From Acetobacterium malicum subsp. dehalogenans DSM 11527 (GTDB lineage: Bacteria > Bacillota > Clostridia > Eubacteriales > Eubacteriaceae): a DNA stretch of 64,000 nucleotides. Every line of letters starts with the position of its first letter. Position 1 is the first letter of the stretch. This document shows, piece by piece, positions 3,202 to 59,567 of the stretch. The position numbers and the translations under genes were made by a program. The notes beneath the pieces are model-generated. The model was not told the DNA's origin and did not search any database. It was given only the letters and a program-made list of their open reading frames with translations. The stretch is from assembly GCF_000472665.1 (NCBI RefSeq), contig NZ_AXAC01000014.1:1-64000 (forward strand), in the 5' to 3' direction.

Positions 3202-5127
3202 TTACAGCGATAGGCCGGCATTAAAGCCGTCATTGATTGCCACCATGGCATTGCTGGTTTTAACAGCCCCGCCAACGACGATGACGTGGTTGTGAACAGC
3301 TGATAATGCTTCGGCCAGCTGGTTGTTGGGACGGTAGCCTAAAGCGATGACGACAGTATCGGCTGGCAGGGTCTGCTGGCCCTGGCTGTTTTCGATGATT
3401 ACCCCATCATCCAGAATTTCGACCACTTTGGTTTGGGTCATTTGGTTGACCTCATATTCGCAGAGAATTTTCATCAGATTGAACTTGTTGACGCCATCGA
3501 GATCGCTGCAGATCTTGGGCAGCATTTCGATGATGGTCACATCCCGTTGCTGCATCGCCAGATGCGCCGCCGTTTCTGAACCGACCTCACCGCCGCCGGC
3601 GACAACGATCTGATCACCGGTGGCCACATTGCCCAGTAGGGCATCCTCAGCGGTGACAACCAGGGCTTTGTCGATCCCTTTGATCGCTGGTTTGCAGGGG
3701 GTTCCGCCGGTGGCGACGATAACGGTATCCGGTTTTTCAGCGGCGACCAGTTCTTTGGTCACTTGGCGGTTGAGATGAATCGTCACCCCTAACTGATCCA
3801 GTTCGCTCGTGATCCAGTTGGTATAAGTGGCCAACTCACCCTTGCAGGGGGGATAAGCGGCGGATTTAAACTGACCGCCTAAAAAGCTGCCCTCTTCATA
3901 AAGCGTGACCTCGTGGCCTTTGATCGCCGCAGCGCGAGCCGCTTCCAGGCCACCGGGTCCACCGCCGGCAATGAAGACTTTTTGCGGTTTGGTGACTTTG
4001 CTATAATCCAAGTGATATTCTTGGCCCAGCGAGGGATTGACCAGACAGGTGATGGCTTCACCCACCAGTAATTTGCCAACACAGCCTTGCATACACCCGA
4101 TGCAGTAACGGATTGAGGTTAAATCACCAGCCTTGGCCTTGTTTGGCAACTCCGGATCGGCCAGGGAGCCCCGACCCATTCCGATGAAATCGGCTTTGCC
4201 CATTTCCAGCAGACCATCGGCCATGCGGGGATCATTGATGCGGTTGACCGTAAAGACCGGGATATCGACGAGCTGTTTGATCTCAGCAGCAAAATCGACA
4301 GTCCAGGCATGGGAAACATACATCGGTGAAACAATCCCCTTATTATGATCGCCATAGGCACCACTGGAAACATGCAGGGCATCAAAACCCCATTCGGCAA
4401 ATAATTTAGCCAGCACCCGGGATTCAGAAATGTCCCGGCCGCCCTGAACCACTTCGTCAGCCGAAAAACGGATCATGACCGGGAAATCGTCGCCGACCTT
4501 GCCGCGGATATTGGCATAGATTTCTTTAACAAAGCGTAAGCGATTGTCCAGACAACCACCGTATTTATCAGTACGTTTGTTGACATAGGTGGACATGAAT
4601 TCGGCAATTAAATAGCCATGTCCGGCATGCACTTCGATGCCATCAAATCCGGCCTGTTTAGCCCGTAAGGCACAGTCGCCAAAATCTTCAACAATCTGTT
4701 CAATCTCCGGAATGGTCAGCTCCCGGGGCAGTTGCCGCAACCACGGACAGGGGATTGCCGATGGGGCCACCGGCTGAACGCCGCCATTAACGAAGCTGGC
4801 GCTTTGGCGGCCGGCATGATAGATCTGGGCAAAGATTTTTGAATCATACTGATGAATGGTATCAGTCAGTTTTTTGTGACTGGCAATCTGATCATCATTC
4901 CACAGCCCGGCAATAAACTGATAGCCCATGGCATGTTGGCTGACGGCATAATCTTCGGTAATAATCAAGCCCCAGCCGCCCTTGGCCTTGGCTTCGTGAT
5001 AGGCAATATAACGATCGGTGGCGGTGCCGTCTTCATTGCAATAGTTGGCCACCATGGCGGTGACCGCCAGACGATTGGGAATCTCACACTGATTGATTTT
5101 CTTGGGTGTAAATAATTTAGTGAACAT
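3202..5127 (-). CDS. Old-yellow-enzyme NADH:flavin oxidoreductase (2,4-dienoyl-CoA / enoate reductase type)
   Basis: 641-residue flavoprotein. The N-terminal half is an FMN-binding TIM barrel (MFTKLFTPKKI onward). Next come four cysteines in C-x2-C-x3-C-x11-C spacing (residues 342, 345, 349, 361), which bind a [4Fe-4S] cluster in this family. The C-terminal half has an FAD-type AGGGPGG Rossmann motif (about 380) and a second NAD-binding AGGGEVG motif. Relatives reduce activated C=C bonds in enoates or dienoyl-CoA; the substrate here is unknown. I chose ATG 5127 over 5145 because GAGG lies 8 bases upstream of it. It also leaves a sensible leader after the MerR-type promoter at 5162-5192. Expression is probably induced by a MerR regulator. 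Confidence 0.88.
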   Translation of the reverse strand: MFTKLFTPKKINQCEIPNRLAVTAMVANYCNEDGTATDRYIAYHEAKAKGGWGLIITEDYAVSQHAMGYQFIAGLWNDDQIASHKKLTDTIHQYDSKIFAQIYHAGRQSASFVNGGVQPVAPSAIPCPWLRQLPRELTIPEIEQIVEDFGDCALRAKQAGFDGIEVHAGHGYLIAEFMSTYVNKRTDKYGGCLDNRLRFVKEIYANIRGKVGDDFPVMIRFSADEVVQGGRDISESRVLAKLFAEWGFDALHVSSGAYGDHNKGIVSPMYVSHAWTVDFAAEIKQLVDIPVFTVNRINDPRMADGLLEMGKADFIGMGRGSLADPELPNKAKAGDLTSIRYCIGCMQGCVGKLLVGEAITCLVNPSLGQEYHLDYSKVTKPQKVFIAGGGPGGLEAARAAAIKGHEVTLYEEGSFLGGQFKSAAYPPCKGELATYTNWITSELDQLGVTIHLNRQVTKELVAAEKPDTVIVATGGTPCKPAIKGIDKALVVTAEDALLGNVATGDQIVVAGGGEVGSETAAHLAMQQRDVTIIEMLPKICSDLDGVNKFNLMKILCEYEVNQMTQTKVVEILDDGVIIENSQGQQTLPADTVVIALGYRPNNQLAEALSAVHNHVIVVGGAVKTSNAMVAINDGFNAGLSL

Positions 5128-8856: not shown

Positions 8857-9501
8857 TTAAATCAACAGTCGGATTGCTGAGCCATCATGGTTCTCAAAAA
8901 AGGTCAGAGCTTCCTGGATATATTGCTGGGTTGTTTCTTCAGGAATTCGCATTAAACGGCCGGTCAAAGTCTGGATGGTGATGTACAGTTCGGTTACTGT
9001 TTTAGCTTGCGGGGCGTTGATATATTGCAGACCAAATTCCTTGCGTAGACAGGTATCCGCAAAAACAGCGGTATCAAAGTCCTCTTTTGTCATCCGGTTG
9101 GGTAGAGCGCGAAAATATGGGTTGTATAATTTCAGGATAATTTCCTGATAAACATATTCAGAGTGGAGCATTTCAGCATGAAAGGCTTGGGTTTGGGGAT
9201 CACTGTAAATAGCATGGTAATGGTAGATCTGTTTGTGAAAATTGATCTGGATACCATTCATATGATCATGATAGGTGTTGGTTCGGACAAAGGATAATAG
9301 TCTGACAATGAATTCTGAATAGATTCGTTCGGCAATATCCTTTTTTTTCTTAAAATAATAGGTCAGTGTCCCCAATTGAATACCGGTTTCGGCGCAGATA
9401 TCCCGCATCGAGGTTTTGGCATAGCCGTTTTTATAAAATAATAGTTTGGCGGTTTGAAGAATCATTTGTTCAGTCTGGAAGCCTTTTTTATATTTTTTCA
9501 T
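8857..9501 (-). CDS. TetR-family regulator, probable repressor of the 9.7 kb methyl-transfer operon
   Basis: 214 residues with an N-terminal TetR DNA-binding domain (about 10-57: MILQTAKLLFYKNGYAKTSM, then RDICAETGIQ and YYFKKKKDI). The C-terminal region is the presumed ligand pocket. A good ribosome site (AGAGGA) precedes the ATG. It is divergent from the methyltransferase operon that starts at 9706. Two copies of a palindrome, TCGTACA-N10-TGTACGA, lie in the 204-bp space between them, one over the operon promoter. That arrangement makes this the likely autoregulated repressor of the operon. The inducer would then be a substrate or product of the methyl-transfer system (inference). Confidence 0.87.
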   Translation of the reverse strand: MKKYKKGFQTEQMILQTAKLLFYKNGYAKTSMRDICAETGIQLGTLTYYFKKKKDIAERIYSEFIVRLLSFVRTNTYHDHMNGIQINFHKQIYHYHAIYSDPQTQAFHAEMLHSEYVYQEIILKLYNPYFRALPNRMTKEDFDTAVFADTCLRKEFGLQYINAPQAKTVTELYITIQTLTGRLMRIPEETTQQYIQEALTFFENHDGSAIRLLI

Positions 9502-9579
9502 GAGATCCTCTTTACGATATTCGCTATAAGTTTGAATTTATTATAGCACAGAAGGAAATAGATGGTTACTGAAAAATAA

Positions 9580-9603
9580 TCGTACAAAAAATAAAATGTA
9601 CGA
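9580..9603. promoter_or_regulatory. TetR operator copy 1
   Basis: Perfect palindrome TCGTACA-N10-TGTACGA. Its distal position, nearer the TetR gene at 8857, fits autoregulation. The identical spacing in copy 2 (9638-9661) supports a true operator pair. Confidence 0.72.
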
Positions 9604-9609
9604 AAAGGA

Positions 9610-9661
9610 TTGCGTTCGCATTTCAAATGTGCTAATATAGTACAAAATAAACAATGTACGA
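9610..9661 (+). promoter_or_regulatory. Operon promoter with TetR operator copy 2 over the start site
   Basis: TTGCGT (9610-9615) and TAATAT (9633-9638) are 17 bp apart. The second palindrome, TAGTACA-N10-TGTACGA (9638-9661), begins at the -10 element and covers the expected transcription start, so a bound repressor would block initiation. Confidence 0.68.
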
Positions 9662-9705
9662 AATCGGATCACACCGATTGAGAATTATGTTAAAAGGAGA
9701 ATGAA

Positions 9706-10686
9706 ATGCTAACAAAAAGACAAAACTTAATGGAAACGATTAAAGGTGGCCAGCCGGACCGGTTTGTCAATCAGTATGAATTTCTGGAACTGATCAGAGA
9801 ATCGCCCAAAGAAGCATTTATGACACCTATGGGGACTGAAGTCAAAAATGCCTGGGGGATTACCATCCGCTGGCCGGAAGGTCAAATCGGGTCCTTCCCA
9901 GTTCATGATCATGGCCATAAGGTCTTAAATGACATTACCGAGTGGCGTGAATACGTGAAGGCTCCGTCAGTGGATTATCCAGCCGAACGCTGGACCGAAG
10001 CTATTGCTCATGCGAAAGCAGTCGATCGCAATGAAAAATTTGTGACCGCTTTTGTAACGCCGGGGATCTTTGAACTGACCCATTATCTGATGGGCATGGA
10101 AGATGCTTTAATGAGTTATTATGAAGAACCGGAAGCCATGCATGAACTGATCGAGTACCTGACTGAATATGAATTGCAGTACGCCCAGCAGCTTATTGAC
10201 AACCTTCACCCGGATGCGCTGTTTCATCATGATGACTGGGGTAGCCAGATTTCGTCATTTATGTCGCCAGAAACATTTAAGGAATTTATTTTACCGGCTT
10301 ACAAAAAAATCTATGGCTTCTATAAGGATAACGGCGTGGAACTGATTGTCCATCACAGCGACAGCTACGGCGTGAACCTGGTGCCCTTCATGATTGAAAT
10401 GGGTATCGATATCTGGCAGGGCGTCATGAATACCAACAATATTCCCGAGCTGATCAAAGAATACGGCGGACAGATTTCATTTATGGGCGGCCTTCACAGC
10501 GGTGAAATTGATTTTCCTGACTGGACCCCTGAAATCGTCATGGAACATGTGGAGAGGGCTTGTAAAGAATGTGGCAAGCATTACTTTATTCCCAATCTCA
10601 GCCAGGGCGCACCAATCAGCTCATTCCCGGGTGTTTATGAGGCCACTTCGGAAGCCATCGACAAGATGAGTGCCGAACTGTTTTAA
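9706..10686 (+). CDS. Methyltransferase I (UROD fold), methyl donor:corrinoid protein
   Basis: 326 residues of the uroporphyrinogen-decarboxylase-like methyltransferase family, as found in vanillate/veratrol-type O-demethylases (MtvB-like). At the place where the 7030 paralogue has H-x-C, this protein has H-H-S-D-S (H216-S220). The metal site is therefore altered, a feature that may separate methyl-donor-specific enzymes from MtaA-type ones. It is the first gene of an operon, followed by a pterin methyltransferase and a corrinoid protein, which together form a complete methyl-transfer set. AAAAGGAG precedes the ATG. The substrate is unknown; a methoxylated compound is a reasonable guess for an acetogen. 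Control is probably by the divergent TetR at 8857. Confidence 0.82.
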   Translation: MLTKRQNLMETIKGGQPDRFVNQYEFLELIRESPKEAFMTPMGTEVKNAWGITIRWPEGQIGSFPVHDHGHKVLNDITEWREYVKAPSVDYPAERWTEAIAHAKAVDRNEKFVTAFVTPGIFELTHYLMGMEDALMSYYEEPEAMHELIEYLTEYELQYAQQLIDNLHPDALFHHDDWGSQISSFMSPETFKEFILPAYKKIYGFYKDNGVELIVHHSDSYGVNLVPFMIEMGIDIWQGVMNTNNIPELIKEYGGQISFMGGLHSGEIDFPDWTPEIVMEHVERACKECGKHYFIPNLSQGAPISSFPGVYEATSEAIDKMSAELF

Positions 10687-10727
10687 CAATAAACAATAAA
10701 TTAAATCACAGCTTTTGGAGGAAAAAA

Positions 10728-11525
10728 TTGATAATTATTGGCGAAAAAATTAATGGGGCCATTCCCTCAACCGGGAAGGCCATAGCGGCAAAGGATGCCG
10801 AATTTATCCGGAACCTGGCCATCAAGCAGGCCGAAGCCGGGGCGAATTTCATCGACGTCTGTGCCTCAGTCGACGATGACATCGAACTGGAAACGATGAA
10901 GTGGTTGATCGACATCGTTCAGGATGCCACCGATGTGCCGATTGCGGTGGACAGCCCCAATGTTTATACCTGCATTGAATCGATGAAATTCTGCAACAAA
11001 CCGGGACTATTTAACTCGGTGTCGCTGGAAGGCGGTAAGGTTGATGAGGCTTTCAAAGTACTGGCGGAGACCAAATGGGAATGTGTTGCCTTATTAAATA
11101 GTGACAAGGGCATCCCTAAAACAGCTAAAGACCGTCTGGACGTTTTCACTGATCTGATGGCAAAATGCAAAGAATATAAGATCGACCCCTCCCGCATGCA
11201 CATTGATCCCTTGATTGAAATGCTTTGTACCTCGGAAGATGGCATTGCCATGGTGACCGAAGTGATCCGGGAAATAAAAAAACAATATCCAACCATTCAT
11301 GTCACCGGCGCCGTCAGCAACATTTCCTTCAACCTGCCCGCCCGTCGGATTGCCAATCAGGCCTTTGCCGTTTTGGCCATGAGTGCCGGCATGGACAGCT
11401 TTATTCTCGATCCACTGAACAAGGATATGATGGGGATGTTGTTTGCCACTGAAGCGATGATGGGTGAAGATGAATACTGTATGGAATATATTGGCGCTTT
11501 CCGGGAAGGTATTTTCGTAAAATAA
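10728..11525 (+). CDS. Methyltransferase II: methyl-corrinoid protein:tetrahydrofolate methyltransferase
   Basis: 265 residues with the pterin-binding (DHPS-like) TIM-barrel fold shared with AcsE and MetH. It starts IIIGEKINGAIPSTGKAI and keeps the family's DVCASVDDD and IAVDSPN strands, which line the folate site. The start is TTG 10728, fixed by TTGGAGG seven bases upstream; no alternative start is as well placed. It sits 41 bases after methyltransferase I and 101 bases before the corrinoid protein, in one operon. Its inferred role is to take the methyl group from the methylated corrinoid protein and pass it to tetrahydrofolate, feeding the methyl branch of the Wood-Ljungdahl pathway. Confidence 0.87.
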   Translation: MIIIGEKINGAIPSTGKAIAAKDAEFIRNLAIKQAEAGANFIDVCASVDDDIELETMKWLIDIVQDATDVPIAVDSPNVYTCIESMKFCNKPGLFNSVSLEGGKVDEAFKVLAETKWECVALLNSDKGIPKTAKDRLDVFTDLMAKCKEYKIDPSRMHIDPLIEMLCTSEDGIAMVTEVIREIKKQYPTIHVTGAVSNISFNLPARRIANQAFAVLAMSAGMDSFILDPLNKDMMGMLFATEAMMGEDEYCMEYIGAFREGIFVK

Positions 11526-11626
11526 ACAAGAGCAAAAATGGTTATACTAAACCCGGCACTCACACAGGTTCCGGGTGGGAATAAATGAAATACATAAAAT
11601 TCGAATCAAAAATCAAGGAGAAAAAG

Positions 11627-12256
11627 ATGTCAAAAATTGAAGAAGTAAAAGTATTGGTCGAAACTGGTAAATCAAAGAAGGTTGCTGCCGCTGTTCAGGA
11701 AGCTCTGGATGCTGGCGATAAAGCCCAGGATATTCTGGATGCGATGATCGCTTCCATGGGTGTGGTGGGGGATAGATTTTCTTCCGGTGAAATCTTTGTG
11801 CCGGAAATGTTAATTGCTGCTAAAGCCATGTCTAAGGGTGTGGAAGTGCTAAAACCAGTCATGGCTGGCGATGGCTCCAGTTCACTGGGTACCTGTATTA
11901 TGGGAACCGTGGCCGGAGACCTTCACGATATCGGTAAAAACCTGGTCGTCATGATGCTTGAAAGCGCTGGATTTGATATGGTTGACCTGGGTGTTGACGT
12001 TCCAGCCGAGCGATTTGTGGAAGCTGTCAAAGAAAATAACAACGTGGTCCTGATTGCCTGTTCCGGACTATTGACAACGACGATGCCAGCTTTAAAAGAA
12101 GCGGTTCAAACCATTAAAGCAGCCTACCCAGATATGAAAGTCATTGTTGGTGGTGCGCCGGTTACTCAGGAATACGCCAATGAAATCGGCGCCGATGGTT
12201 ACGCTCCTGACGCCGGTAGCTCCGCGTCAAAAGCCAAAGAACTGATTGGCGCTTAA
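11627..12256 (+). CDS. Corrinoid protein (B12-binding methyl carrier)
   Basis: 209 residues, the usual length of MtaC/MtvC-type carriers. The N-terminal helical cap domain spans about 1-85, followed by a Rossmann-like cobalamin domain. The lower-ligand motif D-x-H-x-x-G is present as DLHDIG (98-103), with H100 the expected cobalt ligand. SGLLTTTM and GGAPV of the B12 fold follow. ATG 11627 has AAGGAG upstream; an earlier in-frame ATG at 11585 lacks one. It is closely similar along its whole length to the corrinoid protein at 30224. In the operon it would shuttle the methyl group between methyltransferases I and II. Confidence 0.93.
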   Translation: MSKIEEVKVLVETGKSKKVAAAVQEALDAGDKAQDILDAMIASMGVVGDRFSSGEIFVPEMLIAAKAMSKGVEVLKPVMAGDGSSSLGTCIMGTVAGDLHDIGKNLVVMMLESAGFDMVDLGVDVPAERFVEAVKENNNVVLIACSGLLTTTMPALKEAVQTIKAAYPDMKVIVGGAPVTQEYANEIGADGYAPDAGSSASKAKELIGA

Positions 12257-12326
12257 TTTAAATGAACCCCTATCTCTTTCGGGGATAAAGTGAGATTTGA
12301 TTTTTTCTGTTTTTATCTCAGAAAGC

Positions 12327-12369
12327 CCCCTGATTGGACTCGCAGATTTTCTGCGAGTCCAATCAGGGG
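12327..12369. repeat. Perfect 19-bp inverted repeat between corrinoid-protein and transporter genes
   Basis: The arms at 12327-12345 and 12351-12369 are exact reverse complements with a 5-base loop (ATTTT). There is no T-run after it on either strand, so it is not a classical terminator. It may be an mRNA-stabilising hairpin that sets different expression for upstream and downstream genes, or an operator. Confidence 0.75.
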
Positions 12370-12433
12370 ATCAAAAAACTGAAGTTTAGTAAGAAAACGT
12401 TTAAAATAAGAAAAAAGTAGGAGGATCATGACA

Positions 12434-13822
12434 ATGATCAGAATGAATAATAAAATTAAGAATTTTTATGGTATTGGTGATATGTTCTTCTCGTTTATGG
12501 TTTGTATTGAACTTTATTTCATGATGGTGTTTTTAACCGATGTTTTGAAACTCAATGTCGCCATGGCCGGAACCATCGTTTCTATTACTGCAATGGGGGA
12601 TTTAATTACTTCCTTTATTGCCGGTGGTATTGTCGATAAATCCAACTTGAAATGGGGGAAATACCGTTCCTGGTTACTGTTTGCCCCGGGGGTAGCATCA
12701 GTCTTCTTTGTGATGGAGTTCTCCGGTGTTGGTTCAGCCACAACAGCGGGCATCGTCTTTACAATCTGTTATCTTATCTCTCATACCTTATGGAATATTT
12801 TTTATACCGCCAGTCGGGCCCTTGCCGGTGCCGTTACCGATGATCCGACCGAACGGGCGCATATTTCGGGCCGAATTTCAGCCTGGATGAATGCTGGACG
12901 AATCGCCGGATCTAAAATAGTCATTCTGATGATCGGATTCTTTGCTGCCAGTTTTGGCAGCGGCGAAAGTCAGCTAATTGGTTATACGATAACTGCGCTG
13001 ATTACCAGTGTCTTAATGTGTATTGGTTATCTGATTCACTTTAAAATAACTGATGGTTATGATAAGCCTCAGGAAGTATCTAAAGAAGACGCTGCTAAGC
13101 AGAAGGTGACGATTGCAGATATGTTCAAGGGTGTTGGGAAGAACCCACCGCTGATTTCGGTTCTGGTTTGTGAGTTTCTGCGACTCAGTGGTTATTATAT
13201 GATGATGGCCTTAGCCGCTTACTACTGTAAACTGGTGCTTGGCAATCCCGCTGCAATTGGTAATCTTCTGATGGCGATGAACATCTGCTGTCTAATCGGT
13301 GCTCTTTGCTCAAAAACCTTTGTTACAAAGTTGGGAACAAAAATGACAACTGTATTAGGAATGGGTGGCGCAGCCATGATGATGGTGGTAGCTATGATGG
13401 TTTCCCCTAATCTTACTGGTGTCACGGTTTGTCTGGCAATCAGCCAATTGTTCTACGGAATTTCTTTTGGTCTGACAACCAGTCTTTATGCAAATGCAGC
13501 CACCTATGCAGAATTCTCCACCGGAAAAAACACGGCCGGCTTTATCATGGGTTTATTATCCTTCTCAATTAAGGGTGCGATCTTTATTCGTGGTCTGATT
13601 ATCACCTTTGTGCTTGGTTTTATCGGTTACAGTGCTGATATGACCGTCAATCAGCAAGTAATTGGAAATACGACAATTGCTTTCTTCATTATCCCAGCGG
13701 TTCTGATTGCTATTGGTATTTTACCACTGTTCATGATGAAAATGAAAGACAGTGATGTCATCGATATGCGGAAAGAAATTGAAGCACGCAAAAATGTTCA
13801 AGTAAGTGTCGAAGCACAATAA
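12434..13822 (+). CDS. GPH/MFS-type cation symporter
   Basis: About 462 residues with roughly 12 hydrophobic segments. The beginning (NNKIKNFYGIGDMFFSFMV) and the loop VDKSNLKWGKYRSWLLFAP match the glycoside-pentoside-hexuronide symporter family (MFS_2), which imports organic solutes with H+ or Na+. The AGGAGG at 12419-12424 is only 3 bases from ATG 12428 but 9 from ATG 12434, so I prefer the latter. It follows the corrinoid-protein gene after the perfect hairpin at 12327-12369. It may belong to the same operon and import the methyl donor or export its demethylated product; this is inference from position. The substrate is unknown. Confidence 0.8.
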   Translation: MIRMNNKIKNFYGIGDMFFSFMVCIELYFMMVFLTDVLKLNVAMAGTIVSITAMGDLITSFIAGGIVDKSNLKWGKYRSWLLFAPGVASVFFVMEFSGVGSATTAGIVFTICYLISHTLWNIFYTASRALAGAVTDDPTERAHISGRISAWMNAGRIAGSKIVILMIGFFAASFGSGESQLIGYTITALITSVLMCIGYLIHFKITDGYDKPQEVSKEDAAKQKVTIADMFKGVGKNPPLISVLVCEFLRLSGYYMMMALAAYYCKLVLGNPAAIGNLLMAMNICCLIGALCSKTFVTKLGTKMTTVLGMGGAAMMMVVAMMVSPNLTGVTVCLAISQLFYGISFGLTTSLYANAATYAEFSTGKNTAGFIMGLLSFSIKGAIFIRGLIITFVLGFIGYSADMTVNQQVIGNTTIAFFIIPAVLIAIGILPLFMMKMKDSDVIDMRKEIEARKNVQVSVEAQ

Positions 13823-13833
13823 ACAACTTTTTA

Positions 13834-13874
13834 AAAGGTGCTGTTTAGTCTTACAAAGATTGAACAGCACCTTT
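13834..13874 (+). terminator. Hairpin terminator after the transporter
   Basis: AAAGGTGCTGTT (13834-13845) pairs perfectly with AACAGCACCTTT (13863-13874). The following bases are T/A-rich but the T-run is short, so termination may be partial. Confidence 0.6.
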
Positions 13875-13905
13875 AATTCAGTATCAGAATAAATGAGGTG
13901 ATTGA

Positions 13906-16236
13906 GTGAGGACGGATAAAAGCTTACTATCAAAGATGATTTTAAAGCTGGGAATTCCTTCAGGGATATTGTTTGTAGTGATGTTTGGTGCGGTATTGTA
14001 TTGTGTTAAGCAGAGTGTTATCGATGCAACACAACTGATCTTTGTGCAGAGGAGTATCATAATCATTTTCAGTACAGGTTTGATTTTTACTGTGTTATTG
14101 TTTCTTTTAACGATGAGTAATTTATCAAAAAAAGTCGAACGTATGGTAAAGATTGTGCAATTGATTGATAACGATGAGATTAATTTTGCAGCCATGAAAA
14201 AAACGGGCCGTTCAAAGGATTCATTAGATGAGATGATGTGTCATATCTATTCAATTGCGGCAAAACATAAAAATAATATTCTACTTGCTGAAGGCATAGT
14301 CGAAGGTAATTTTTCGCGAGACGATTCAGATTCAACTGTATCGAATCGACTCGGCCATAGTTTAAACAAGATCGGTAGTTCGATCAAAGATATGGAAATC
14401 GCAACCAAAAATTATTTGGAATTAACACAACAGGGAATATTTGAAAAAAGATCCCAGTCAGAGGCGCTGACAGGTGGTTTTACCAAGGTCAATCATAATG
14501 TTGATGAAATCATTAATACAATTATCGATAAAATGGATTTTTACTATTCCATTCTTGATGCAATTCCACACTCCTTTTTAGTAACCGATGCCGACATGAG
14601 ATTCAAATATTTTAATAAACGTTATTCCGACTATTTAGTTTCATTTGGTATTATTGAAAATCGTCAATCAGCCATGGGGCTTGATTGTTGTATTTCGGCT
14701 GCAGATATGTGCGGAACTGAACGATGTGCCAGAAGATTATTGGTAGAAAAAGGCCTGTCAACAACCAATTTTGAAGCACGAGGCAAGTATTATAAAATGG
14801 ACATGGTCTATCTTAAAAATAAAAATGGGGAATTGACATCTGACTTATTGGAAATGACCCTGGACCAGACTTCAATAATGAGCATTAATGAATTCACAAA
14901 AACAGAAGTAGCCCGATTTGAAAAAAACCTCATATGTCTGGCTGAAGGAGATCTGAATTTTGATTTAGCAATTGCTGATGTCAATGACTATACTGAAGAA
15001 GTCTACGGGCAATTCAATTCAATTGCTCAGAGCATGGATCGTGTCAAAGATTCGATTAGTGCCCTCACAAACAATGCGTCAATATTGATCAATGCCACGG
15101 TGAAAGGAGAATTAGATACCCGGGCCGATGTATTGCAGTTCAACGGTAACTGGAGAACACTGATCGACGGAATGAATAGAATTCTAGAGGAAACTTCCAA
15201 ACCGCTAAATGAGGTTGTTCAAGTGATGGATTCAATTTCAAAAGGCCACTTGGATATCAGGATCAAGGGCAATTATCAAGGAGACTTTGAGAAATTGAAG
15301 CAATCGGTTAATCAAACAACAGAAAATCTAAATTTGGTGATTGGCGAAATAGCAGCCCTAACTGGAGAAATCAGCAGTGGAAATCTCAATATCAATCGTA
15401 TCGAAAATTTTGGAGGTGATTACAACAGCATCTCAGATGCATTAAATACGATTGTTAAAACCCTCAACGGGTTATTACTTGAAATTAACGATTCTGCTCA
15501 ACAAGTTAGTGCTGGGGCCAATCAGGTGGCGATGGGTAGTCAGTCTTTGGCTCAGGGCTCCACTGAACAGGCAAGTTCAATTGAGGAGTTGACAGCATCA
15601 ATTACTGAAATAGCTAATCAAACAAAGAAAAGCGCTGAAGATGCCGGCAGTGCTCAGGGTTTGGCGACACGAGTGAAAGAAAATGCACTGAATGGAAACA
15701 TCCGAATGATTGAGATGCAAAACTCAATGCTTGAGATAAATCGGTCTTCAATAGATATCTCGAAAATAATTAAAGTGATCGATGATATTGCTTTTCAGAC
15801 AAATATTCTAGCCCTCAATGCCGCAGTAGAAGCAGCCAGAGCCGGCCAGCATGGAAGAGGCTTTGCAGTGGTTGCTGAAGAGGTAAGAACTCTCGCGGCA
15901 CGAAGTGCAGAAGCCGCCAAAGAGACAACGATATTAATAGAAGGGTCCATTGGAAAAGTACAAATTGGAACGAAAATTGCTGACGAAACAGCAACTGCAC
16001 TTTCTGAAATCGTGGATGGTATTGGCCAAGTAACCGATTTGATTGGTCGCATTGCCAGAGCTTCAAATGAGCAGGCTACTGGGATTGCTCAGATAAATAT
16101 CGGCATTGAACAGGTTACCACGGTTGTTCACCAGAATTCTGCGACAGCAGAAGAAAGTGCTGCCGCCAGTGAAGAGCTGTCGGGACAGGCAGAATTACTT
16201 AAGAATAAATTGAGATATTTTACGTTGAGATCATAG
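13906..16236 (+). CDS. Methyl-accepting chemotaxis protein with cysteine-bearing PAS domain
   Basis: 776 residues, GTG start fixed by GAGGTG five bases upstream. Two membrane helices (about 15-35 and 46-66) are separated by only some ten residues, so there is almost no extracellular sensor domain. The cytoplasm holds a PAS-like domain (about 208-330), which contains C261, C262, C269 and C274. HAMP-like repeats and a C-terminal MCP signalling domain follow, with the hallmark sequence [20 protein letters not shown]. Sensing is therefore probably intracellular, possibly through a metal or redox cofactor held by the cysteines (inference). The C-x7-C-x4-C spacing recurs in the receptor at 38923. 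It lies between two transporter genes. Confidence 0.9.
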
Positions 16237-52562: not shown

Positions 52563-53687
52563 TTAATAGCGGATCCAATCAATCAGCAACTGCTGGGTTT
52601 GGGGTGCTGGCTTTTTATCAAGCCAGTTGGGAAACCAGGCATTAACCATCAGATACATCGGGTTGTGCGGAATCCCCTCGCTAAAGCGGGTCAGCAGAAT
52701 ATCATCGACATAAAAATCGATGGTGTCCGGCTGATAGTCAATCCGGTAGTGATGAAAATCAGCGGTCGGGTCAAAACTCAGATCGCTGGTCAGCGTTTGG
52801 GTCAGAGCACCGTTGGCATAGCTGGTAAACATGATTTTGCCATCCGGCTGATTATAGATTTCAATGTCAATTTCCTGATCATAATCCGGGGCGGCATAGA
52901 GAAAAAAACCGGTGATCGACGAGGGTGCATTGGGTAGTTTCATCGAAATCTCATAGCTGCCATAGCCCTTTAAATCAGTGCTGGAAACTTCACCGCTGGC
53001 CATTGTTCCGGCCGGGATGGTAATCGCCAGCTGGCCATCGGTGACGGCCACGTTTTCGGGCTTGAACTGGGTCTGGCCGAGGCGATGGCTGGAGGCTTTA
53101 AAGACGGCGGGATCGAGGCTGCCAGAAAATTTGGGCACAATCCGGATCTGGATGGCTTCCAGTCGTTTGGATTCACCGGCGGTGCCGGCGATGGCCCCGT
53201 CTTTTTTCCAGCCCTGGGACCAGCCGTAGTCCTGAATATGAACCCGGTATTCAACGGCATAATCGGTTGCCGGTTGACCAGCGGCGTCGGTGAGTTGCAG
53301 CTGAATTGCTTCCAGCCGCTGGCTTTTGCCCTGGGAACCGGCAAAGTCACCGTCCTTTTTCCAACTGAGCGGCTCGTCAGTGGCCGCCTGCCAGCCTTCG
53401 TTTTGTATATGGACATTATAGCGGATGCTGTAATTCCCGGTGGCTGCGGCTTCCCCGGTTAACTCCACAGTCAGCCCTTCAATCCGTTTGCCTTCGCCAG
53501 TGGTGCCCAACAGGCCGCCATCCGTGACGACACCGTTATCCGCCGGCAGATCTCCGTAATCCTGAATATGGCCGCGATAAACCGCCCCCAGAGAGGCGGT
53601 TGTGGCTGTCTGGGCGTAAAGGGGAACCGGGAACACGAACACAAACAGCAGCACACCGAGTAGCCCGACAATGGACATGATTTTCAT
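52563..53687 (-). CDS. Secreted glycoside hydrolase family 16 protein with three ChW repeats
   Basis: 374 residues. A signal peptide (MSIVGLLGVLLFVFVFPVPL, then YAQ) is followed by three clostridial hydrophobic-W repeats (about 35-185), each with HIQ(D/N)xGW and GxxGxxxRLEAI cores. A GH16 beta-glucanase-like domain follows (about 195-374). The catalytic motif EIDIE is visible in QEIDIEIYN. It probably acts on beta-1,3 or beta-1,3-1,4 glucans or related polysaccharides, with ChW repeats thought to attach to the cell surface. A strong GGAGGTGT-type ribosome site precedes the start. A second ChW protein lies on the other side of the defence-like island. Confidence 0.88.
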   Translation of the reverse strand: MKIMSIVGLLGVLLFVFVFPVPLYAQTATTASLGAVYRGHIQDYGDLPADNGVVTDGGLLGTTGEGKRIEGLTVELTGEAAATGNYSIRYNVHIQNEGWQAATDEPLSWKKDGDFAGSQGKSQRLEAIQLQLTDAAGQPATDYAVEYRVHIQDYGWSQGWKKDGAIAGTAGESKRLEAIQIRIVPKFSGSLDPAVFKASSHRLGQTQFKPENVAVTDGQLAITIPAGTMASGEVSSTDLKGYGSYEISMKLPNAPSSITGFFLYAAPDYDQEIDIEIYNQPDGKIMFTSYANGALTQTLTSDLSFDPTADFHHYRIDYQPDTIDFYVDDILLTRFSEGIPHNPMYLMVNAWFPNWLDKKPAPQTQQLLIDWIRY

Positions 53688-54034
53688 GGGACACCTCCTC
53701 GCAATCGTTCATCAGCGATAATTATTCTTTGTTGGAATTCTATCAAAGGAATCTTAATTATAGAGCCATCGTAGTTGATTTTCGGCTGTCATCGGAGTCC
53801 TTTACCAATCACCGGAATTGGGCCGGACAAATGGCTGTCATTTATTAATAAAAGTGAAAATAGAGAAAAAGCGTGGCGGAAAAAGTACAATTTGCAATAG
53901 CCATTTTTTGTTAAAAGGCGTATAATTATAAACGAATGCAAAAATAAATGCACAAGATAAAACCACCAAATAAAAGCTGTCAAATTAAAAATAAAACTGG
54001 CAGATAAAATAGACACAGGAAATCAGGAGAAAAA

Positions 54035-55475
54035 ATGATCACAGGCGAAGTAAAAAACAAAGTTGATAAAATATGGACCGATATCTGGGCCGGCGGGATC
54101 AGCAACCCCCTTACCGTCATCGAACAGCTGACCTATTTGATGTTTATCCGGTCACTGGACGAAAAAGAACTGGAAAACGAGAGTTTTGAAAATCTCACCG
54201 GCGAAACCATGCCCAAAATCTTTCCCCCCACCGAGGCCGGCCAGAACCTGCGCTGGAGCCGCACTGATCTGATCGATGGCAACTATACCGACAAGCGGCG
54301 CTTTTTTATCTTTGACTATCTCGGCAATTTTGAGTTTTTCCGGGCCCATAAGGAGGGCCTCGAAAGCCGCGAGACCGGATCTCTCAGTGAGGTCATCTTT
54401 GCCAAACGAGTGCGGCTGATCCGCCACCTGCAGGTCAGCACCTATGCTGCCAACAAGCTATCAGCACTGGCGCCAGGAGCTGGTAAAAACGGTGCTGGAT
54501 CAGGTCCAGAGCCTCAACCCCGAGCTGATTGCGGTCAGTTTAAGACGGCGGTTTGTCGAACAATTCCGCCCGGCCAGCGCTTTCATCTGCCTGAGCGAGC
54601 AGGATCAGGGCGCCCTGGTCCATGAAATTGCGTCGCTGGACTTTATGGCCGACACCGACGAGCCGGCCAAGCGTTTTGACAACCTGATCTACGGCCTGAT
54701 GCTGAGCCAGATTGAAGCTCTGCCGGCCTATCATACCGCTAAACGCCAGCCGTGCGGCCTGATGAACGAGCTGGAGCAGAAAATCACGATACCCCAGATC
54801 AAGGCCCGGCTACCGCTGATCCAGACGGTCACTACCGATGAATTTTGGACCGCCGGAGATCTGCTGGCCTTTGAAAAAGTGCGGCAGGAACTCCGCGAGC
54901 TGATAAAGTTTATCATTGAGAACGGCCAGGAAAAGTCAGCGGTGATCACCAACCTCTACGATCCGATTATCAATCGCAACGAGGGAGTGGTGATGGAAGC
55001 GGCCTATGACTACGGCGATTATAAAATGAAGGTAAACCGCTATGTCAATGACCATCAGGATACCCTGGCAATCCAGAAACTGCGCAAAAATATCCCCCTG
55101 ACCCAGACGGACTACCAGGTGCTGGAGCACATCCTCACCATAGAACTGGGCAGCAAGGCTGATTATCAGCGCGAATTCGGCGAAACGCCATTTGGATTGC
55201 TGATCCGCAAGATCGCCAAACTGGAACCCCAGGCGGCGATGGCGGCCTTCTCCGACTTTATCGACGACCAGACCTTGAACCAATCCCAGATCGTCTTCGT
55301 CCGCAAGGTCATCGACTACGTGGTCCAGAACAGCTACATCGAAAACGTCACCGAACTGATGAAACCGCCCTTTGACAAACCACAAAGCTTCGGCAAGCTG
55401 TTCGATCTGACCAAACAGCAGCGGCTGGTGGAAATTGTTAAGGCAGTTAAGGAGAATGCGGTGCGGATTGGGTGA
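54035..55475 (+). pseudogene. Type I restriction remnant: hsdM 5' end fused to hsdR 3' end, frameshifted
   Basis: The first part (from ATG 54035, with AGGAGAAAAA upstream) encodes the HsdM N-terminal helical domain (IWAGGISNPLTVIEQLTYLM, then FIRSLDEKE and FPPTEAGQNLRWS). At about 54280 it switches into HsdR-type sequence (FFIFDYLGNFEFF, SLSEVIFAKRVRLIRHLQ), with the methyltransferase core, the specificity subunit and the helicase missing. At about 54440-54460 the frame shifts by one base, and the second frame (to 55475) continues as the EcoEI-type HsdR C-terminal domain. The nuclease and modification functions cannot be active. A large internal deletion is the simplest origin. Confidence 0.82.
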
Positions 55476-55591: not shown

Positions 55592-56638
55592 ATGAATATT
55601 TGGCTGCATCGAATTTCGCACGGTTATGAGGCTGCAAAGCCTTTGTTGGACCAGAATTATGTAACCATCGGTTTTGCTGATTATGTCAGCGACTTCTTAA
55701 AATATGATAGTGACACCAAAGTTGTTCGGGATCAATTTGAAGCTGACATGGAAACGATTTACGGAGCAAGCTTTCGACCACGTCATAATTTGAAAAAATT
55801 TCTGTTTGAATTTGAAGTGGGTGATCAGGTAGTAATCCCATTATGGGGGGAGTTTTCTGTTTATAAAATAATTGAAACAGCTAAACCATTAACCAGTTTG
55901 CCTAACGAGGCGCTGGAAAAAATGAATACTAAAGTTTTTATAGACAAGGACGGTTTATTGTCCATTCAGCGAAATGATACAGAGATAGCAGAAATTGATC
56001 TAGGCTTTTTTATTCGGGTTGAACCAATCAAACTGAATATTCCCCGGGATGGCTATTGCAGTTCCGCCTTGATTTCTAGGATGAAGATACGGCAAGCAAC
56101 GGCAAACATCAGTGATCTGGCGATGGATGTGAATGATGCTGTCGATCGGGCTCATACCAACAGTCGGATAGACTTTCATTATGAAGCAAGTAAGGCAATG
56201 GGTGAAAACCTGATCAGTGCAATTCTGAATAAGCTGAATGACCGGAAATTTGAAAAAATGGTGCAGTGGTACATGCAAAAAATTGGTGCAACGGAGACTA
56301 CGATTCCAGCCAAAAATGAACCGGGGAAATATGATGGGGCGGATGCCGATGTTATTGCCATTTTTGAGCTCTTAAAGTGTATTATTTACGTACAGGTTAA
56401 ACACCATGTCGGTCTGACATCTGAACGGGCAGTAAATCAGATCGCTCGATACAAAGAACAAAAAGAAGTGCCTGATGACGCCTATACCCGCATGACCTGG
56501 GTGGTTACCAGTGCTGAATTTTCTGATGAAACCAAGAAAAAAGCACAATTAGATGGGGTGCGTTTGATTGATCAACATGAATTTGCGAGTATGCTGATTG
56601 ATGTAGGTCTTGATGGGATTAATGATGCGTTTAATTAA
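55592..56638 (+). CDS. Mrr-like restriction endonuclease
   Basis: 348 residues. The N-terminal domain (about 1-190) begins MNIWLHRISHGYEAAKPLLD and resembles the target-recognition half of some Mrr-like proteins. The C-terminal PD-(D/E)xK nuclease has FEKMVQWYMQKIGA, D253 and the QVK motif (Q268-V269-K270), the D-x14-QxK pattern of Mrr. Mrr-type enzymes usually cut DNA carrying foreign modification. ATG 55592 has AGGAGG six bases upstream. The gene is AT-richer than the remnant before it. It is only 29 bases before a KAP NTPase gene, so the two likely form one unit. Confidence 0.8.
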   Translation: MNIWLHRISHGYEAAKPLLDQNYVTIGFADYVSDFLKYDSDTKVVRDQFEADMETIYGASFRPRHNLKKFLFEFEVGDQVVIPLWGEFSVYKIIETAKPLTSLPNEALEKMNTKVFIDKDGLLSIQRNDTEIAEIDLGFFIRVEPIKLNIPRDGYCSSALISRMKIRQATANISDLAMDVNDAVDRAHTNSRIDFHYEASKAMGENLISAILNKLNDRKFEKMVQWYMQKIGATETTIPAKNEPGKYDGADADVIAIFELLKCIIYVQVKHHVGLTSERAVNQIARYKEQKEVPDDAYTRMTWVVTSAEFSDETKKKAQLDGVRLIDQHEFASMLIDVGLDGINDAFN

Positions 56639-56667
56639 GAATTAATTTAAATAAGGAGGTCATAAAA

Positions 56668-58458
56668 ATGGCAAAGTATTCAGGTTATACAGATCGTCCG
56701 ACTTCTTCAATTAATGAAGATTTATTCAATATTGAAAAATATATACAGGGGTTATCTAGTTTTATATTGGAATGCAATACCCCAATGACAATCGCCATAC
56801 AAGGAGATTGGGGAAGTGGCAAGACCAGCTTTATGAATATGATAAAAGAGACTGTGCAGGAGAAAGTTGTTGTTTCCTGGTTTAATACCTGGCGATATTC
56901 ACAATTCAATATGGGCGATGAGATTTCATTATCTCTTATCAGACAGTTGATCAACACTTTACCGGGACTAGATGAAAAAATGAGCGATTCGATGAAAAAA
57001 ATAATTAATGGAGTGGCAAAGGTTATAAAAGCAGGGGCGCTTGTTGCTGCAGAAGTTGGTGGTTTTGGTAACGTAGCTGAAGGTGTTGTAAAAGTTGTAG
57101 ATAGTAATGCCTCAGCTAATGCTGATCAAATCGATGCAACACTTTCACTGGGAATGTTAAAAGAGCAGTTTCAAGAATGCATTCGACAAGTTCTTGTAAC
57201 GTCAGGTAAAGATCGAGTGGTTGTGTTTGTTGATGATTTGGATCGACTAAACCCTGCAAAGGCAGTTGAATTATTAGAGGTATTAAAACTATTTTTGGAT
57301 TGTGAAAATTGCGTATTTATTCTCGCCATTGATTACCAGGTCGTTTCGCAAGGAATTTCCGAAAAATATGGTAATACATTGGATGAGGAAAAAGGAAAGG
57401 CATTCTTTGATAAAATCATCCAGGTGCCTTTTAAAATGCCGGTGGCTTTATATGACATGTATAAATTCATCAATAATATGTTGGAAGAAATTGGTTTCCA
57501 ATATGAGATGACAAACAAAAATCAAACGATTGATTATTATATTAAATTGATTCAAGCTTCAATAGGCTCAAACCCCAGAGCGATCAAACGCCTTTTTAAT
57601 GCCTATCTTTTACTGAAAAAGATATATGGAGTTGATTCTGAATTAGATGAAGTTGGACAAAAATTACTGTTTGCTATCCTCTGTGCTCAGCTGTCTTTTG
57701 AAAATCTGTATAATTATATTATATTAAATAAGTGTGATGTCTCAAATGGTGACTTTTTACAAAAATTAAAAAATCAGAAATCTTATTTAGATGAAAATAA
57801 TGGTACTTCATTATACAAGGAACTCGGAATAAAAAATGATGACGAGTTACGAAAAATTTGCTATTTTATGGAAATCTTTTATAAAGCAATTGATCACAAT
57901 GAGGATGGAGATTTATCAGAAGAAGAAACAGAAAAATTCATTAACCTTTTAAACTTATCATCGATCATTTCAACAAACGATCTTACCGAAAACAAGGACG
58001 AAAAATCATGGATGATTCGAAGAAGCAATCGCAGACTGGTTAAACAATCGGTATTTTTTACTCTAAAAAAATATAAGGAGTTAAATTTAAAAATATATCA
58101 ATCAAATCAAGATCGTGGTGACTGGAAATTTCAGGATGTATCTGCTAGTGGTACTTTTAGCATCCAAAAAAATAAGGTGGAATTCTGTTTTCAACTACAA
58201 ACGGATTTTGATACGGAGTTTACAAAAATCATTTTCAGATTTGACGAAAACAATAATCCCAACAAAAACGATCGTGGTGTCTTTTTTGATGACTTATCTG
58301 GGTGGGCCGAAGCAAACGATTTTGAATGTGATGATAATCATTGTTTTTCTAAAACGATTAATACCGTTAAATATGATAATGAAGAAGGAATTTTGAATGT
58401 ATTGAATAATGAGGTAAGGTCTATTCTTGATTCATTAAAAGCGTTGTATAAAGACTGA
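56668..58458 (+). CDS. KAP-family P-loop NTPase with EF-hand loop
   Basis: 596 residues. Walker A is GDWGSGKT (46-53), and Walker B is VVVFVDDLDRLNP (184-196, catalytic acid pair D189/D190). Both are typical of KAP NTPases such as PifA and of phage-defence STAND-like proteins. A hydrophobic insert (about 110-150, VIKAGALVAAEVGGFGNVAE) could associate with membrane. Residues 409-420 (DHNEDGDLSEEE) match the calcium-binding EF-hand loop at every ligand position. The C-terminal 100 residues are not recognised. It lies 29 bases after the Mrr-like nuclease gene with AAGGAGG, so it is co-transcribed. The probable role is defence against phage or plasmid; inference from family and neighbours. Confidence 0.85.
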   Translation: MAKYSGYTDRPTSSINEDLFNIEKYIQGLSSFILECNTPMTIAIQGDWGSGKTSFMNMIKETVQEKVVVSWFNTWRYSQFNMGDEISLSLIRQLINTLPGLDEKMSDSMKKIINGVAKVIKAGALVAAEVGGFGNVAEGVVKVVDSNASANADQIDATLSLGMLKEQFQECIRQVLVTSGKDRVVVFVDDLDRLNPAKAVELLEVLKLFLDCENCVFILAIDYQVVSQGISEKYGNTLDEEKGKAFFDKIIQVPFKMPVALYDMYKFINNMLEEIGFQYEMTNKNQTIDYYIKLIQASIGSNPRAIKRLFNAYLLLKKIYGVDSELDEVGQKLLFAILCAQLSFENLYNYIILNKCDVSNGDFLQKLKNQKSYLDENNGTSLYKELGIKNDDELRKICYFMEIFYKAIDHNEDGDLSEEETEKFINLLNLSSIISTNDLTENKDEKSWMIRRSNRRLVKQSVFFTLKKYKELNLKIYQSNQDRGDWKFQDVSASGTFSIQKNKVEFCFQLQTDFDTEFTKIIFRFDENNNPNKNDRGVFFDDLSGWAEANDFECDDNHCFSKTINTVKYDNEEGILNVLNNEVRSILDSLKALYKD

Positions 58459-58565: not shown

Positions 58566-59567
58566 ATGAAAAATAAATTTCAGTTCGTTTTTCGTTTGTT
58601 TTTAGCTTTCATGCTGCTGTTAACCACTATTCCAATTGGAGTAATAGCAGAAACGCAAGAATATGCTGATGTTCAAATACCTATAGTTGCTGAAGACAAT
58701 GTCCAACTTAGTGAGGAATCAGTATCAGTCCACACTGATACAATGACAACCCCATCTTGTTTCTATCGCACCCATGTACAAAACGAAGGCTGGCAGGAAT
58801 GGAAAAGCAATGGTGGTATGAGCGGCACTTCGGGAAAAGGTCTCCGTCTCGAAGGTATCGAAATAAAATTGGATCAGCAGGGTTGTGATCTAGGGGTATC
58901 TTACAGCACCCATGTACAAAATATTGGTTGGCAGGGATCAAAAATTGATGGTGTCACGAGCGGAACATCTGGTCAAGGTCTTCGACTGGAAGCGATCCGT
59001 ATTAATCTGACTGGTTCAGATGCTGAATTGTTTGATATTTACTATCAGGTCCATGTGCAAAACTATGGTTGGCTGGACTGGGCTAAAAATGGAGCAGAAG
59101 CAGGCACCCAGGGTTTAGGTTTGCATTTAGAAGGAATAAATATTCTTATTTTTCCAAAAGGTAGTGTGGCCCCCGGCGCAACTATGACACCCTATGTTAG
59201 TGTCGATGCATTCTTAAATAATATTAAAGGCGATTGGTATAATCGTTCATTGAAATTTGCAGGACCGCACTTAAAGATCAGAGAGCCAAATGTAGAATCA
59301 GGTTTATTATGGTTGGGTATGAAATGGCATGAATATCGCTATCGGATTGTTTCAATCAGTCGAGATGGAAAATCTGGAACAATCGAAGCATACAAGTGGA
59401 ACTATTATAAACCATACGCAACGAGTTCTGGAAGTACGGCGTTTCAAAAAGTTGAAATGGATGTAAACCCTCCCGATCAATATGTTGATAATTCTAATAC
59501 CAATACTCTAACAGAATCAGAACAAACTGGTAGTAGTGTTCGTGTTATAAATTATACTCGAAATTGA
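58566..59567 (+). CDS. Secreted protein with three ChW repeats
   Basis: 333 residues. A signal peptide (FVFRLFLAFMLLLTTIPIGV, then IAE) and a short linker come first. Three ChW repeats follow (about 63-200), each with HVQNxGW and GTxGxGLxLEgI cores. The C-terminal domain (about 210-333, ending SVRVINYTRN) contains HEYRYRIVSISRD and YKWNYYKPY and is unrecognised. AAAGGTAGG precedes the ATG. ChW repeats occur in cell-surface proteins of Clostridia and relatives. It shares the repeat type with the GH16 protein at 52563 on the far side of the defence-like island. Confidence 0.85.
   Translation: MKNKFQFVFRLFLAFMLLLTTIPIGVIAETQEYADVQIPIVAEDNVQLSEESVSVHTDTMTTPSCFYRTHVQNEGWQEWKSNGGMSGTSGKGLRLEGIEIKLDQQGCDLGVSYSTHVQNIGWQGSKIDGVTSGTSGQGLRLEAIRINLTGSDAELFDIYYQVHVQNYGWLDWAKNGAEAGTQGLGLHLEGINILIFPKGSVAPGATMTPYVSVDAFLNNIKGDWYNRSLKFAGPHLKIREPNVESGLLWLGMKWHEYRYRIVSISRDGKSGTIEAYKWNYYKPYATSSGSTAFQKVEMDVNPPDQYVDNSNTNTLTESEQTGSSVRVINYTRN

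What the first reader, a model, noticed from the sequence alone, without database searches (positions are those of the whole stretch)
55592..58458. Two-gene Mrr-like nuclease plus KAP NTPase, candidate undescribed defence unit
A PD-(D/E)xK QxK nuclease and a KAP P-loop NTPase are 29 bases apart on one strand, next to a dead type I restriction locus. Each family is linked to defence, but I do not know this particular pair, with this N-terminal Mrr half and an EF-hand-bearing KAP, as a named system.
Basis: partly seen in the sequence, partly recalled or inferred. Interest (0 to 1): 0.75.

Follow-up and report, generated by a model that had tools for sequence, protein, structure and literature searches.

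The report
Modified-DNA nuclease paired with KAP NTPase
Two neighbouring bacterial genes encode a DNA-cutting enzyme with a predicted modified-base reader and a ring-type ATPase; together they look like a small, rarely seen anti-phage unit built from known parts, which remains to be tested.

Summary
At 55592-58458 (+) lie a 348-aa nuclease and, 29 bases on, a 596-aa KAP NTPase, beside a type I locus gutted by a ~6.5 kb deletion. Both genes are intact and under purifying selection. So it looks like a type IV, modification-dependent restriction enzyme. The NTPase core is closest in fold to the RADAR ring ATPase RdrA. In 19 genomes of the genus both genes occur in the same three and neither was found in the other 16; one of the three carries the pair in another defence island, between a RhuM gene and a Shango operon. 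Outside the genus the families mostly occur apart: 11 of 15 nuclease loci lack the KAP. Related KAP genes also sit near a UzuA GIY-YIG nuclease, a PDDEXK_4 nuclease and EVE-McrB/McrC; six of 13 show no recognised nuclease. Both proteins match PADLOC candidate families (PDC-S02, PDC-S20); my searches found no paper on the pair. Plausible defence pair, new variant of a known kind, function untested.

The parts
55592..56638 (+). Nuclease, 348 aa: residues 1-190 EVE/YTH-like (PUA superfamily) domain, 199-348 Mrr/MspJI-like PD-(D/E)xK domain; E221, D251, D253, Q268, K270 catalytic set
55592..56161 (+). EVE/YTH-like modified-base reader domain (codons 1-190), assigned by fold only
   Evidence: 1wmm Z 9.4, 9szp Z 9.4, 6yex Z 9.2; not found by Pfam; no match to one McrB EVE domain by hhalign
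56186..56635 (+). PD-(D/E)xK (Mrr_cat) nuclease domain (codons 199-348)
   Evidence: (1y88 Z 13.9, 4f0p Z 13.1, 4oc8 Z 12.7)
56639..56667 (+). 29-base gap with ribosome-binding site AAGGAGG ahead of the NTPase ATG
56668..58458 (+). KAP P-loop NTPase, 596 aa: KAP core, helical region, weak EF-hand-like loop (residues 409-420), C-terminal beta-rich domain about 475-595
53999..54258 (+). Remnant of hsdM start (type I methylase; ORF 54035-54625), 91% identical over 261 columns to G005
54290..55475 (+). Remnant of hsdR C-terminal end (ORF 54444-55475, EcoEI_R_C)

Best explanation
A two-gene anti-invader module. The first protein works like a type IV (modification-dependent) restriction enzyme: an N-terminal EVE/YTH-like domain reads a base modification on incoming DNA, and a C-terminal Mrr/MspJI-like PD-(D/E)xK domain cuts near it. 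The second protein, a KAP NTPase expected to form an RdrA/QatA-like ring, is an ATP-dependent partner that gates or helps the nuclease, for example by sensing infection or loading on DNA, much as McrB does for McrC. Shown by computation: both genes intact and under purifying selection, active-site residues, folds, joint presence in three genomes of the genus, defence-island settings. Inferred: modified-base reading, cleavage, ring assembly, physical or functional coupling, and phage or plasmid protection.
For: Nuclease model pLDDT 89.2; residues 1-190 align with EVE and YTH domains at Z 8.5-9.4 over 114-130 residues in the rows shown (PH1033 1wmm, YTHDC2 with m6A DNA 9szp, VcaM4I EVE-HNH 6yex), residues 199-348 with MspJI at 13.1 and AspBHI at 12.7; Foldseek's only five hits at E<=0.001 are MspJI (4) and AspBHI (1) chains. 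E221/D251/D253/Q268/K270 invariant in 13 of 13 rows. KAP core best matches RdrA, Z 17.1, 2.9 A, 208 residues. Both genes found in the same 3 of 19 genomes of the genus and neither in the other 16. In G015 the pair lies between a RhuM/PDC-S05 gene and SngA-SngB-SngC, about 10 kb after a type I system. In G005 it follows an intact-looking type I system. dN/dS 0.157 and 0.109. Related KAPs lie near other nucleases: UzuA GIY-YIG directly upstream in L045, PDDEXK_4 one gene away in L089, EVE-McrB/McrC one gene away in L055.
Against: 11 of 15 inspected nuclease loci have no KAP of this clade nearby and 9 of 13 full KAP-clade loci lack this nuclease, 6 of 13 lacking any nuclease that I could recognise. 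In family f114, 8 of 151 genomes carry the nuclease and 3 of 151 the KAP, with no genome in common. The EVE/YTH call rests on fold alone: no Pfam EVE or YTH hit in 9 of 9 members at E<=1, and hhalign to one McrB EVE domain gives 5%. The KAP model is only moderate (pLDDT 73.3). Two of the three genus genomes share the locus by descent, so joint presence is about two events, and several of the 16 negative genomes are incomplete. No control was made for how often any KAP gene has a nuclease neighbour.
Confidence: 0.5

Rival explanations
1. Two independent single-gene defences that happen to be neighbours: a stand-alone EVE/YTH-Mrr type IV nuclease (PDC-S02 kind) and a stand-alone PifA/PDC-S20-like KAP exclusion protein.
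For: PADLOC lists each family as a candidate of its own (that 'S' means single-gene is recalled); both occur without the other in most loci inspected; defence genes of all kinds cluster in islands, as around the pair in G015.
Against: Both-or-neither in 19 of 19 genus genomes, same order and direction among different neighbours, gaps of 29, 18 and about 102 bases; nucleases recur near the KAP clade.
Confidence: 0.35
2. The nuclease's N-terminal domain does not read base modifications: it is a PUA-like domain that binds RNA, a nucleotide signal or a phage protein, and the pair is an abortive-infection device in which the KAP senses infection and the nuclease degrades DNA indiscriminately.
For: The YTH matches include RNA readers; the nuclease domain also resembles Can2/Cdn1 second-messenger nucleases (Z 9.6-10.9); the KAP core resembles plant NLR, CED-4 and Avs3 NTPases at Z about 11-12.
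Against: MspJI/AspBHI score higher for the nuclease domain and are Foldseek's top hits over the whole length; the N-terminal half aligns with EVE/YTH rows, not with the sensor half of Can2/Cdn1 (50 rows shown).
Confidence: 0.12
3. A decaying relic of a defence island, no longer functional, like the neighbouring type I locus.
For: The adjacent hsd genes are dead and the pair is found in only 3 of 19 genomes of the genus.
Against: Both ORFs intact, catalytic and Walker residues kept, dN/dS 0.11-0.16 against G005.
Confidence: 0.03

Closest known systems
EVE/YTH-PD(D/E)XK type IV restriction enzymes (PMC7641849; passages read)
   Same: A PUA-superfamily reader domain fused to a PD-(D/E)XK nuclease (by fold)
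   Different: Reader too diverged for Pfam EVE/YTH; here a KAP NTPase gene follows; the word KAP does not occur in that paper's main text
MspJI / AspBHI
   Same: Modification-sensing N-terminal domain plus PD-(D/E)xK C-terminal domain; top Foldseek hits, Z about 13 for the nuclease domain
   Different: Their reader is SRA-like (recalled); here EVE/YTH-like; they have no NTPase partner (recalled)
Winged-helix- or RAMA-Mrr catalytic domain-NTPase fusions (PMC11037411; passages read)
   Same: Reader, Mrr-type (PD-QXK) nuclease and NTPase brought together; predicted type IV systems
   Different: One chain there, two genes here; other reader domains; the NTPases discussed there are McrB-like, not named as KAP in the passages read
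PADLOC PDC-S02 and PDC-S20 candidates
   Same: Nuclease matches PDC-S02 profiles (best 3.6e-11) and KAP matches PDC-S20 (2.8e-36)
   Different: Listed as separate candidates; matches are partial; [quoted passage not shown]
McrBC
   Same: NTPase plus PD-(D/E)xK nuclease against modified DNA; works-like analogy
QatABCD (QatA) and RADAR (RdrA)
   Same: KAP or KAP-like ring NTPase in a defence operon; RdrA is the nearest solved fold (Z 17.1); QatA reported to assemble as heptamer or octamer and to bind DNA (PMC13279940, passages read)
   Different: Window protein scores 122 bits on the QatA model and 13 on RdrA, cut-off 600 each; no QatBCD or RdrB recognised next to it
Uzume (UzuA GIY-YIG)
   Same: A UzuA homologue is the immediate upstream neighbour of a 47%-identical KAP in L045
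   Different: Different nuclease fold; Uzume is a one-gene system (recalled)

Membership tests
Type IV (modification-dependent) restriction enzyme | Reader domain of the PUA superfamily | tested here: met
   Fold match of residues 1-190 to EVE/YTH, Z 8.5-9.4; by fold only, Pfam silent, hhalign to one McrB EVE negative
Type IV (modification-dependent) restriction enzyme | Intact nuclease active site | tested here: met
   E221, D251, D253, Q268, K270 invariant in 13 of 13 rows of A6
Type IV (modification-dependent) restriction enzyme | Cuts modified but not unmodified DNA | not testable with these tools
   Needs biochemistry
Type IV (modification-dependent) restriction enzyme | No methylase next to it in the operon | tested here: inconclusive
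   Window: only an hsdM remnant. But a complete-looking type I methylase lies in the same island in G005 (directly preceding system) and about 10 kb upstream in G015; that these belong to the neighbouring type I systems is the likely reading, not shown
E. coli Mrr | Mrr_cat domain | tested here: met
   PF04471 above cut-off
E. coli Mrr | N-terminal winged-helix Mrr_N domain (recalled) | tested here: not met
   No Pfam hit, and the N-terminal half is modelled as a strand-rich domain that aligns with EVE/YTH
KAP NTPase | PF07693 with Walker A and B | tested here: met
   146.7 bits against cut-off 20; motifs at 46 and 184
QatABCD | QatA equivalog score | tested here: not met
   122.1 bits, cut-off 600
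QatABCD | QatB, QatC and QatD partners | tested here: not met
   None of the 8 neighbouring window ORFs scanned with Pfam (7, one) is a QueC- or TatD-type protein; Qat-specific models (NCBIfam, PADLOC) were run only on the pair and the two hsd remnants
RADAR (RdrA) | RdrA equivalog score | tested here: not met
   13.2 bits, cut-off 600; AAA fold similar, Z 17.1
PifA | Full-length match | tested here: inconclusive
   Matches positions 7-312 of 720 only, E 1.2e-32
PDC-S02 / PDC-S20 (PADLOC) | Full-length profile match above PADLOC's own threshold | tested here: inconclusive
   Partial matches, no cut-offs shown
McrBC | McrB-type AAA GTPase and McrC subunit | tested here: not met
   KAP domain and Mrr_cat instead
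EF-hand protein | EF-hand domain above cut-off | tested here: not met
   EF-hand_10 12.7 bits, cut-off 27; loop read as intact in 5 of 10 rows of A5

The most novel reading that the evidence does not exclude
An NTP-dependent restriction class in which a KAP ring replaces McrB: one KAP clade serves as a common motor or switch for interchangeable nucleases (EVE/YTH-Mrr, GIY-YIG UzuA, PDDEXK_4), the modified-base reader riding on the nuclease rather than on the NTPase.
Probability: 0.2. Interest if true: 0.7.

Novelty: new variant of a known kind. Interest (0 to 1): 0.45.

Why it matters
KAP NTPases turn up in several defence systems (QatA; PifA, recalled; RdrA by fold), but what they do for their partners is unclear; in Qat, defence against some phages survives loss of QatA (PMC13279940, passages read). 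A two-gene pair with a readable nuclease active site and a predicted modified-base reader is a simple setting in which to ask whether a KAP ring gates a nuclease. If coupled, it would add another layout, besides McrBC and single-chain fusions, to NTP-dependent attack on modified DNA, and would explain why related KAP genes sit near unrelated nucleases.

Tried and rejected
Searched for the pair in IMG/VR: six scans gave one contig with both families (L062, also fetched as L105) and one with KAP alone (L063). Protein searches: the nuclease in plasmids gave only 2 Thermus records at 29% identity, in phages none; the KAP in plasmids gave 102 records, none covering 80% of it. The genome-contig scan gave one locus, the G005 relative. 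No relative with a solved structure was found by sequence: profile of the nuclease, two hits at E 0.29 and 0.58 to proteins that I take to be unrelated; profile of the KAP, none at E<=0.1.

Considered and rejected: E. coli Mrr membership (N-terminal half is not Mrr_N); Qat and RADAR membership (NCBIfam scores far below cut-off); a functional EF-hand as a defining feature (below cut-off, lost in half of the aligned relatives). The C-terminal beta-rich domain of the KAP (about 475-595) is not named: the VIA rows covered residues 3-435 only, so it is barely tested. Using downstream flanking DNA to show an empty site failed: matches in 11 of 19 genomes are scattered over several places.

Rows dropped before counting. 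Nuclease loci: L016 (N-terminal fragment), L018 and L057-L059/L061 (nuclease domain only or weak). KAP loci: L049, L051, L052 (cut by contig ends), and L050, L053, L054 plus the weaker rows (outside the clade, E above 1e-60). L085 (short fragment near a contig end) is kept in the 15. L047 and L048 come from one genus and have near-identical neighbours, so they are one observation rather than two. Neighbours of L047 were judged by likeness to L048; L063 has two upstream genes without any Pfam or PADLOC hit. Neighbours outside the nearest few genes were looked at as ORF lists only.

Literature: ten searches of the held PMC library; KAP with Mrr, P-loop and restriction together gave 0 papers. bioRxiv and most subscription papers are not held, so absence from print is not shown. 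Papers with passages read: PMC10853773, PMC13279940, PMC10952713, PMC7641849, PMC11037411, PMC11719660, PMC11514479, PMC12988326; the rest were seen as listings only.
Full report
Observation. Pfam gives Mrr_cat on residues 213-335 of the first (E 8.1e-10) and KAP_NTPase on 24-316 of the second (E 1.2e-42), both over the curated cut-off. PADLOC gives PDC-S02 (and, weakly, ZorD) for the first, and PDC-S20, PifA and QatA for the second. G+C falls from about 50% in the left flank to 30-40% over the pair.

Setting. Upstream, an hsdM start (ORF 54035-54625) and an hsdR tail (ORF 54444-55475) are all that is left of a type I system. Window 53999-54258 matches L017 5498-5756, and the next match starts at window 54290 and L017 12246, so about 6.5 kb is missing in the window. 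The pair survived this loss, with dN/dS 0.157 for the nuclease over 348 codons and 0.109 for the KAP over 596 against G005; against G015 the nuclease gives 0.144 and the KAP's silent sites are saturated.

What the nuclease is. An AlphaFold2 model from nine sequences has mean pLDDT 89.2, pTM 0.65. Foldseek's only five hits at E<=0.001 are MspJI and AspBHI chains. In the second-look alignment, residues 199-348 match 1y88 (from residue 216; Z 13.9), MspJI (13.1, 3.4 A, 136 residues) and AspBHI (12.7, 2.7 A, 131), while residues 1-190 match EVE and YTH domains: PH1033 1wmm (9.4, 3.3 A, 120), YTHDC2 with m6A DNA 9szp (9.4, 3.0 A, 120), VcaM4I EVE-HNH 6yex (9.2, 4.1 A, 130). The aligner's notes say Z under 8 may be a common arrangement; these lie a little above, and among the 50 rows shown those confined to residues 1-192 are all YTH entries, the EVE-HNH enzyme, or PH1033 and MJECL36 (that these two are EVE-fold proteins is recalled). 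Sequence methods do not see it: no EVE or YTH hit in 9 of 9 members at E<=1, and hhalign with one McrB EVE domain gives 5%. The catalytic set E221, D251, D253, Q268, K270 is invariant in the 13 rows of A6. This is the layout of a modification-dependent (type IV) enzyme; EVE-PD(D/E)XK and YTH-like-PD(D/E)XK fusions are reported in PMC7641849 (passages read). In G005 and G015 the nuclease shares an island with an N6_Mtase-type type I methylase, so a reader of any m6A whatever is unlikely (inference).

What the KAP protein is. Its model is moderate (pLDDT 73.3). The core is nearest to RdrA of RADAR (Z 17.1, 2.9 A, 208 residues; the best rows that are not RdrA are at 11.9). RdrA is a heptamer (abstract of PMC9994260 as listed) and QatA appears as a heptamer or octamer that binds DNA (PMC13279940, passages read), so a ring is a fair inference. 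The strongest 19-residue hydropathy average is 1.63 and falls in the NTPase core, so there is no clear membrane segment, unlike the KAP family's original membrane theme (recalled). A beta-rich domain of about 120 residues ends the protein; its fold was not tested.

Conservation of the pair. In the 19 genomes of the genus, the nuclease (E<=0.001) and the KAP clade (E<=1e-40) were both found in G000, G005 and G015 and neither in the other 16, some of which are incomplete (for the nuclease, for the KAP). If three carriers were drawn at random for each gene, agreement has probability 1/969, but G000 and G005 share the locus by descent, so this is two events rather than three. In G015 the pair has other neighbours: RhuM (PDC-S05) before it and SngA, SngB, SngC of Shango after it, with a second, distant KAP-type protein and a type I system (its methylase 29% identical to that of G005) further upstream. 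So in both settings the pair lies in an island that also holds, or held, a type I system. Gaps between the two genes are 29, 18 and about 102 bases (the last for the ATG start).

Beyond the genus. Nuclease relatives were found in 6 of 391 class genomes, 5 of 398 phylum genomes (three of these are weak, nuclease domain only) and 8 of 151 genomes of family f114, G000 counted in the first two. KAP-clade genes at E<=1e-60 were found in 6 of 391 class genomes, 4 of 11 in the family of G245, 3 of 151 in f114, 1 of 2 in the family of G253 and 2 of 373 phylum genomes, and at E<=1e-40 in 3 of 67 order genomes; these samples overlap. In f114 no genome has both, which with 8 and 3 of 151 is what chance would give. 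Of 15 nuclease loci read (window, L017, L012, L013, L014, L015, L060, L062, L079-L085), 4 have the KAP: three adjacent, and in L062 with two genes between (L062's nuclease aligns with the family profile at 98.6% probability over 307 columns). Of 13 full KAP-clade loci (window, L017, L012, L045-L048, L055, L062, L063, L089-L091), 4 have this nuclease and 3 have another: UzuA GIY-YIG (PADLOC 3.4e-47) in L045, 4 bases away if the longest ORF start is right, PDDEXK_4 (Pfam 1.3e-30) in L089 with one gene between, and EVE-McrB plus McrC in L055 with one gene between. Six show none that I could recognise. I made no proper control for how often any KAP gene has a nuclease neighbour.

Mechanism. Most likely the nuclease reads a modified base and cuts, and the KAP ring adds an ATP-dependent step. 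The first half is supported by fold and active site; the coupling is supported by joint presence, gene order and the recurrence of nuclease neighbours, and weakened by the many solitary copies and by the general clustering of defence genes. A loose association of two single-gene defences remains nearly as likely.

Novelty. Parts known, combination not found in the ten literature searches made (listed in Tried and rejected); KAP with Mrr, P-loop and restriction returned no paper. The nearest printed hints are a KAP NTPase with Orc/Cdc6 proteins in mobile neighbourhoods (PMC10853773, passage read) and winged-helix or RAMA fusions with an Mrr domain and an NTPase in one chain (PMC11037411, passages read). 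Hence 'new variant of a known kind', interest 0.45.

Noticed in passing
L013 (G335), 9300-14338: The nuclease relative (45% identical in alignment A1) is followed by a prokaryotic Argonaute (PADLOC pAgo, E 0) and a protein with a T5orf172/MUG113 GIY-YIG end: a possible nuclease-pAgo-GIY-YIG cluster.
   Followed up: partly
L060, L062, L063, L055, L079, L083: Several nuclease or KAP loci share a similar WYL-type regulator (Pfam-confirmed in L063) and/or an HD-domain gene (Pfam-confirmed in L079, L083), suggesting a common island type.
   Followed up: partly
window 53999-55475: Type I restriction locus reduced by a deletion of about 6.5 kb relative to G005, leaving an hsdM start and an hsdR end.
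   Followed up: yes
L012 (G015) 1333-3798: An 821-aa protein with a weak KAP match (20.4 bits, cut-off 20) and a hydrophobic N-terminal stretch lies in the same island as the pair.
   Followed up: no
window 52563-53687 (-) and 58566-59567 (+): Two clostridial hydrophobic W-repeat (ChW) proteins flank the region, one with a GH16 domain.
   Followed up: no
L003 2586-3698: A 370-aa gene without Pfam match sits between hsdS and hsdR in the intact relative.
   Followed up: no
window 57892-57927 (KAP residues 409-420): A canonical single EF-hand loop, read as intact in 5 of 10 aligned relatives; calcium control is untested.
   Followed up: partly
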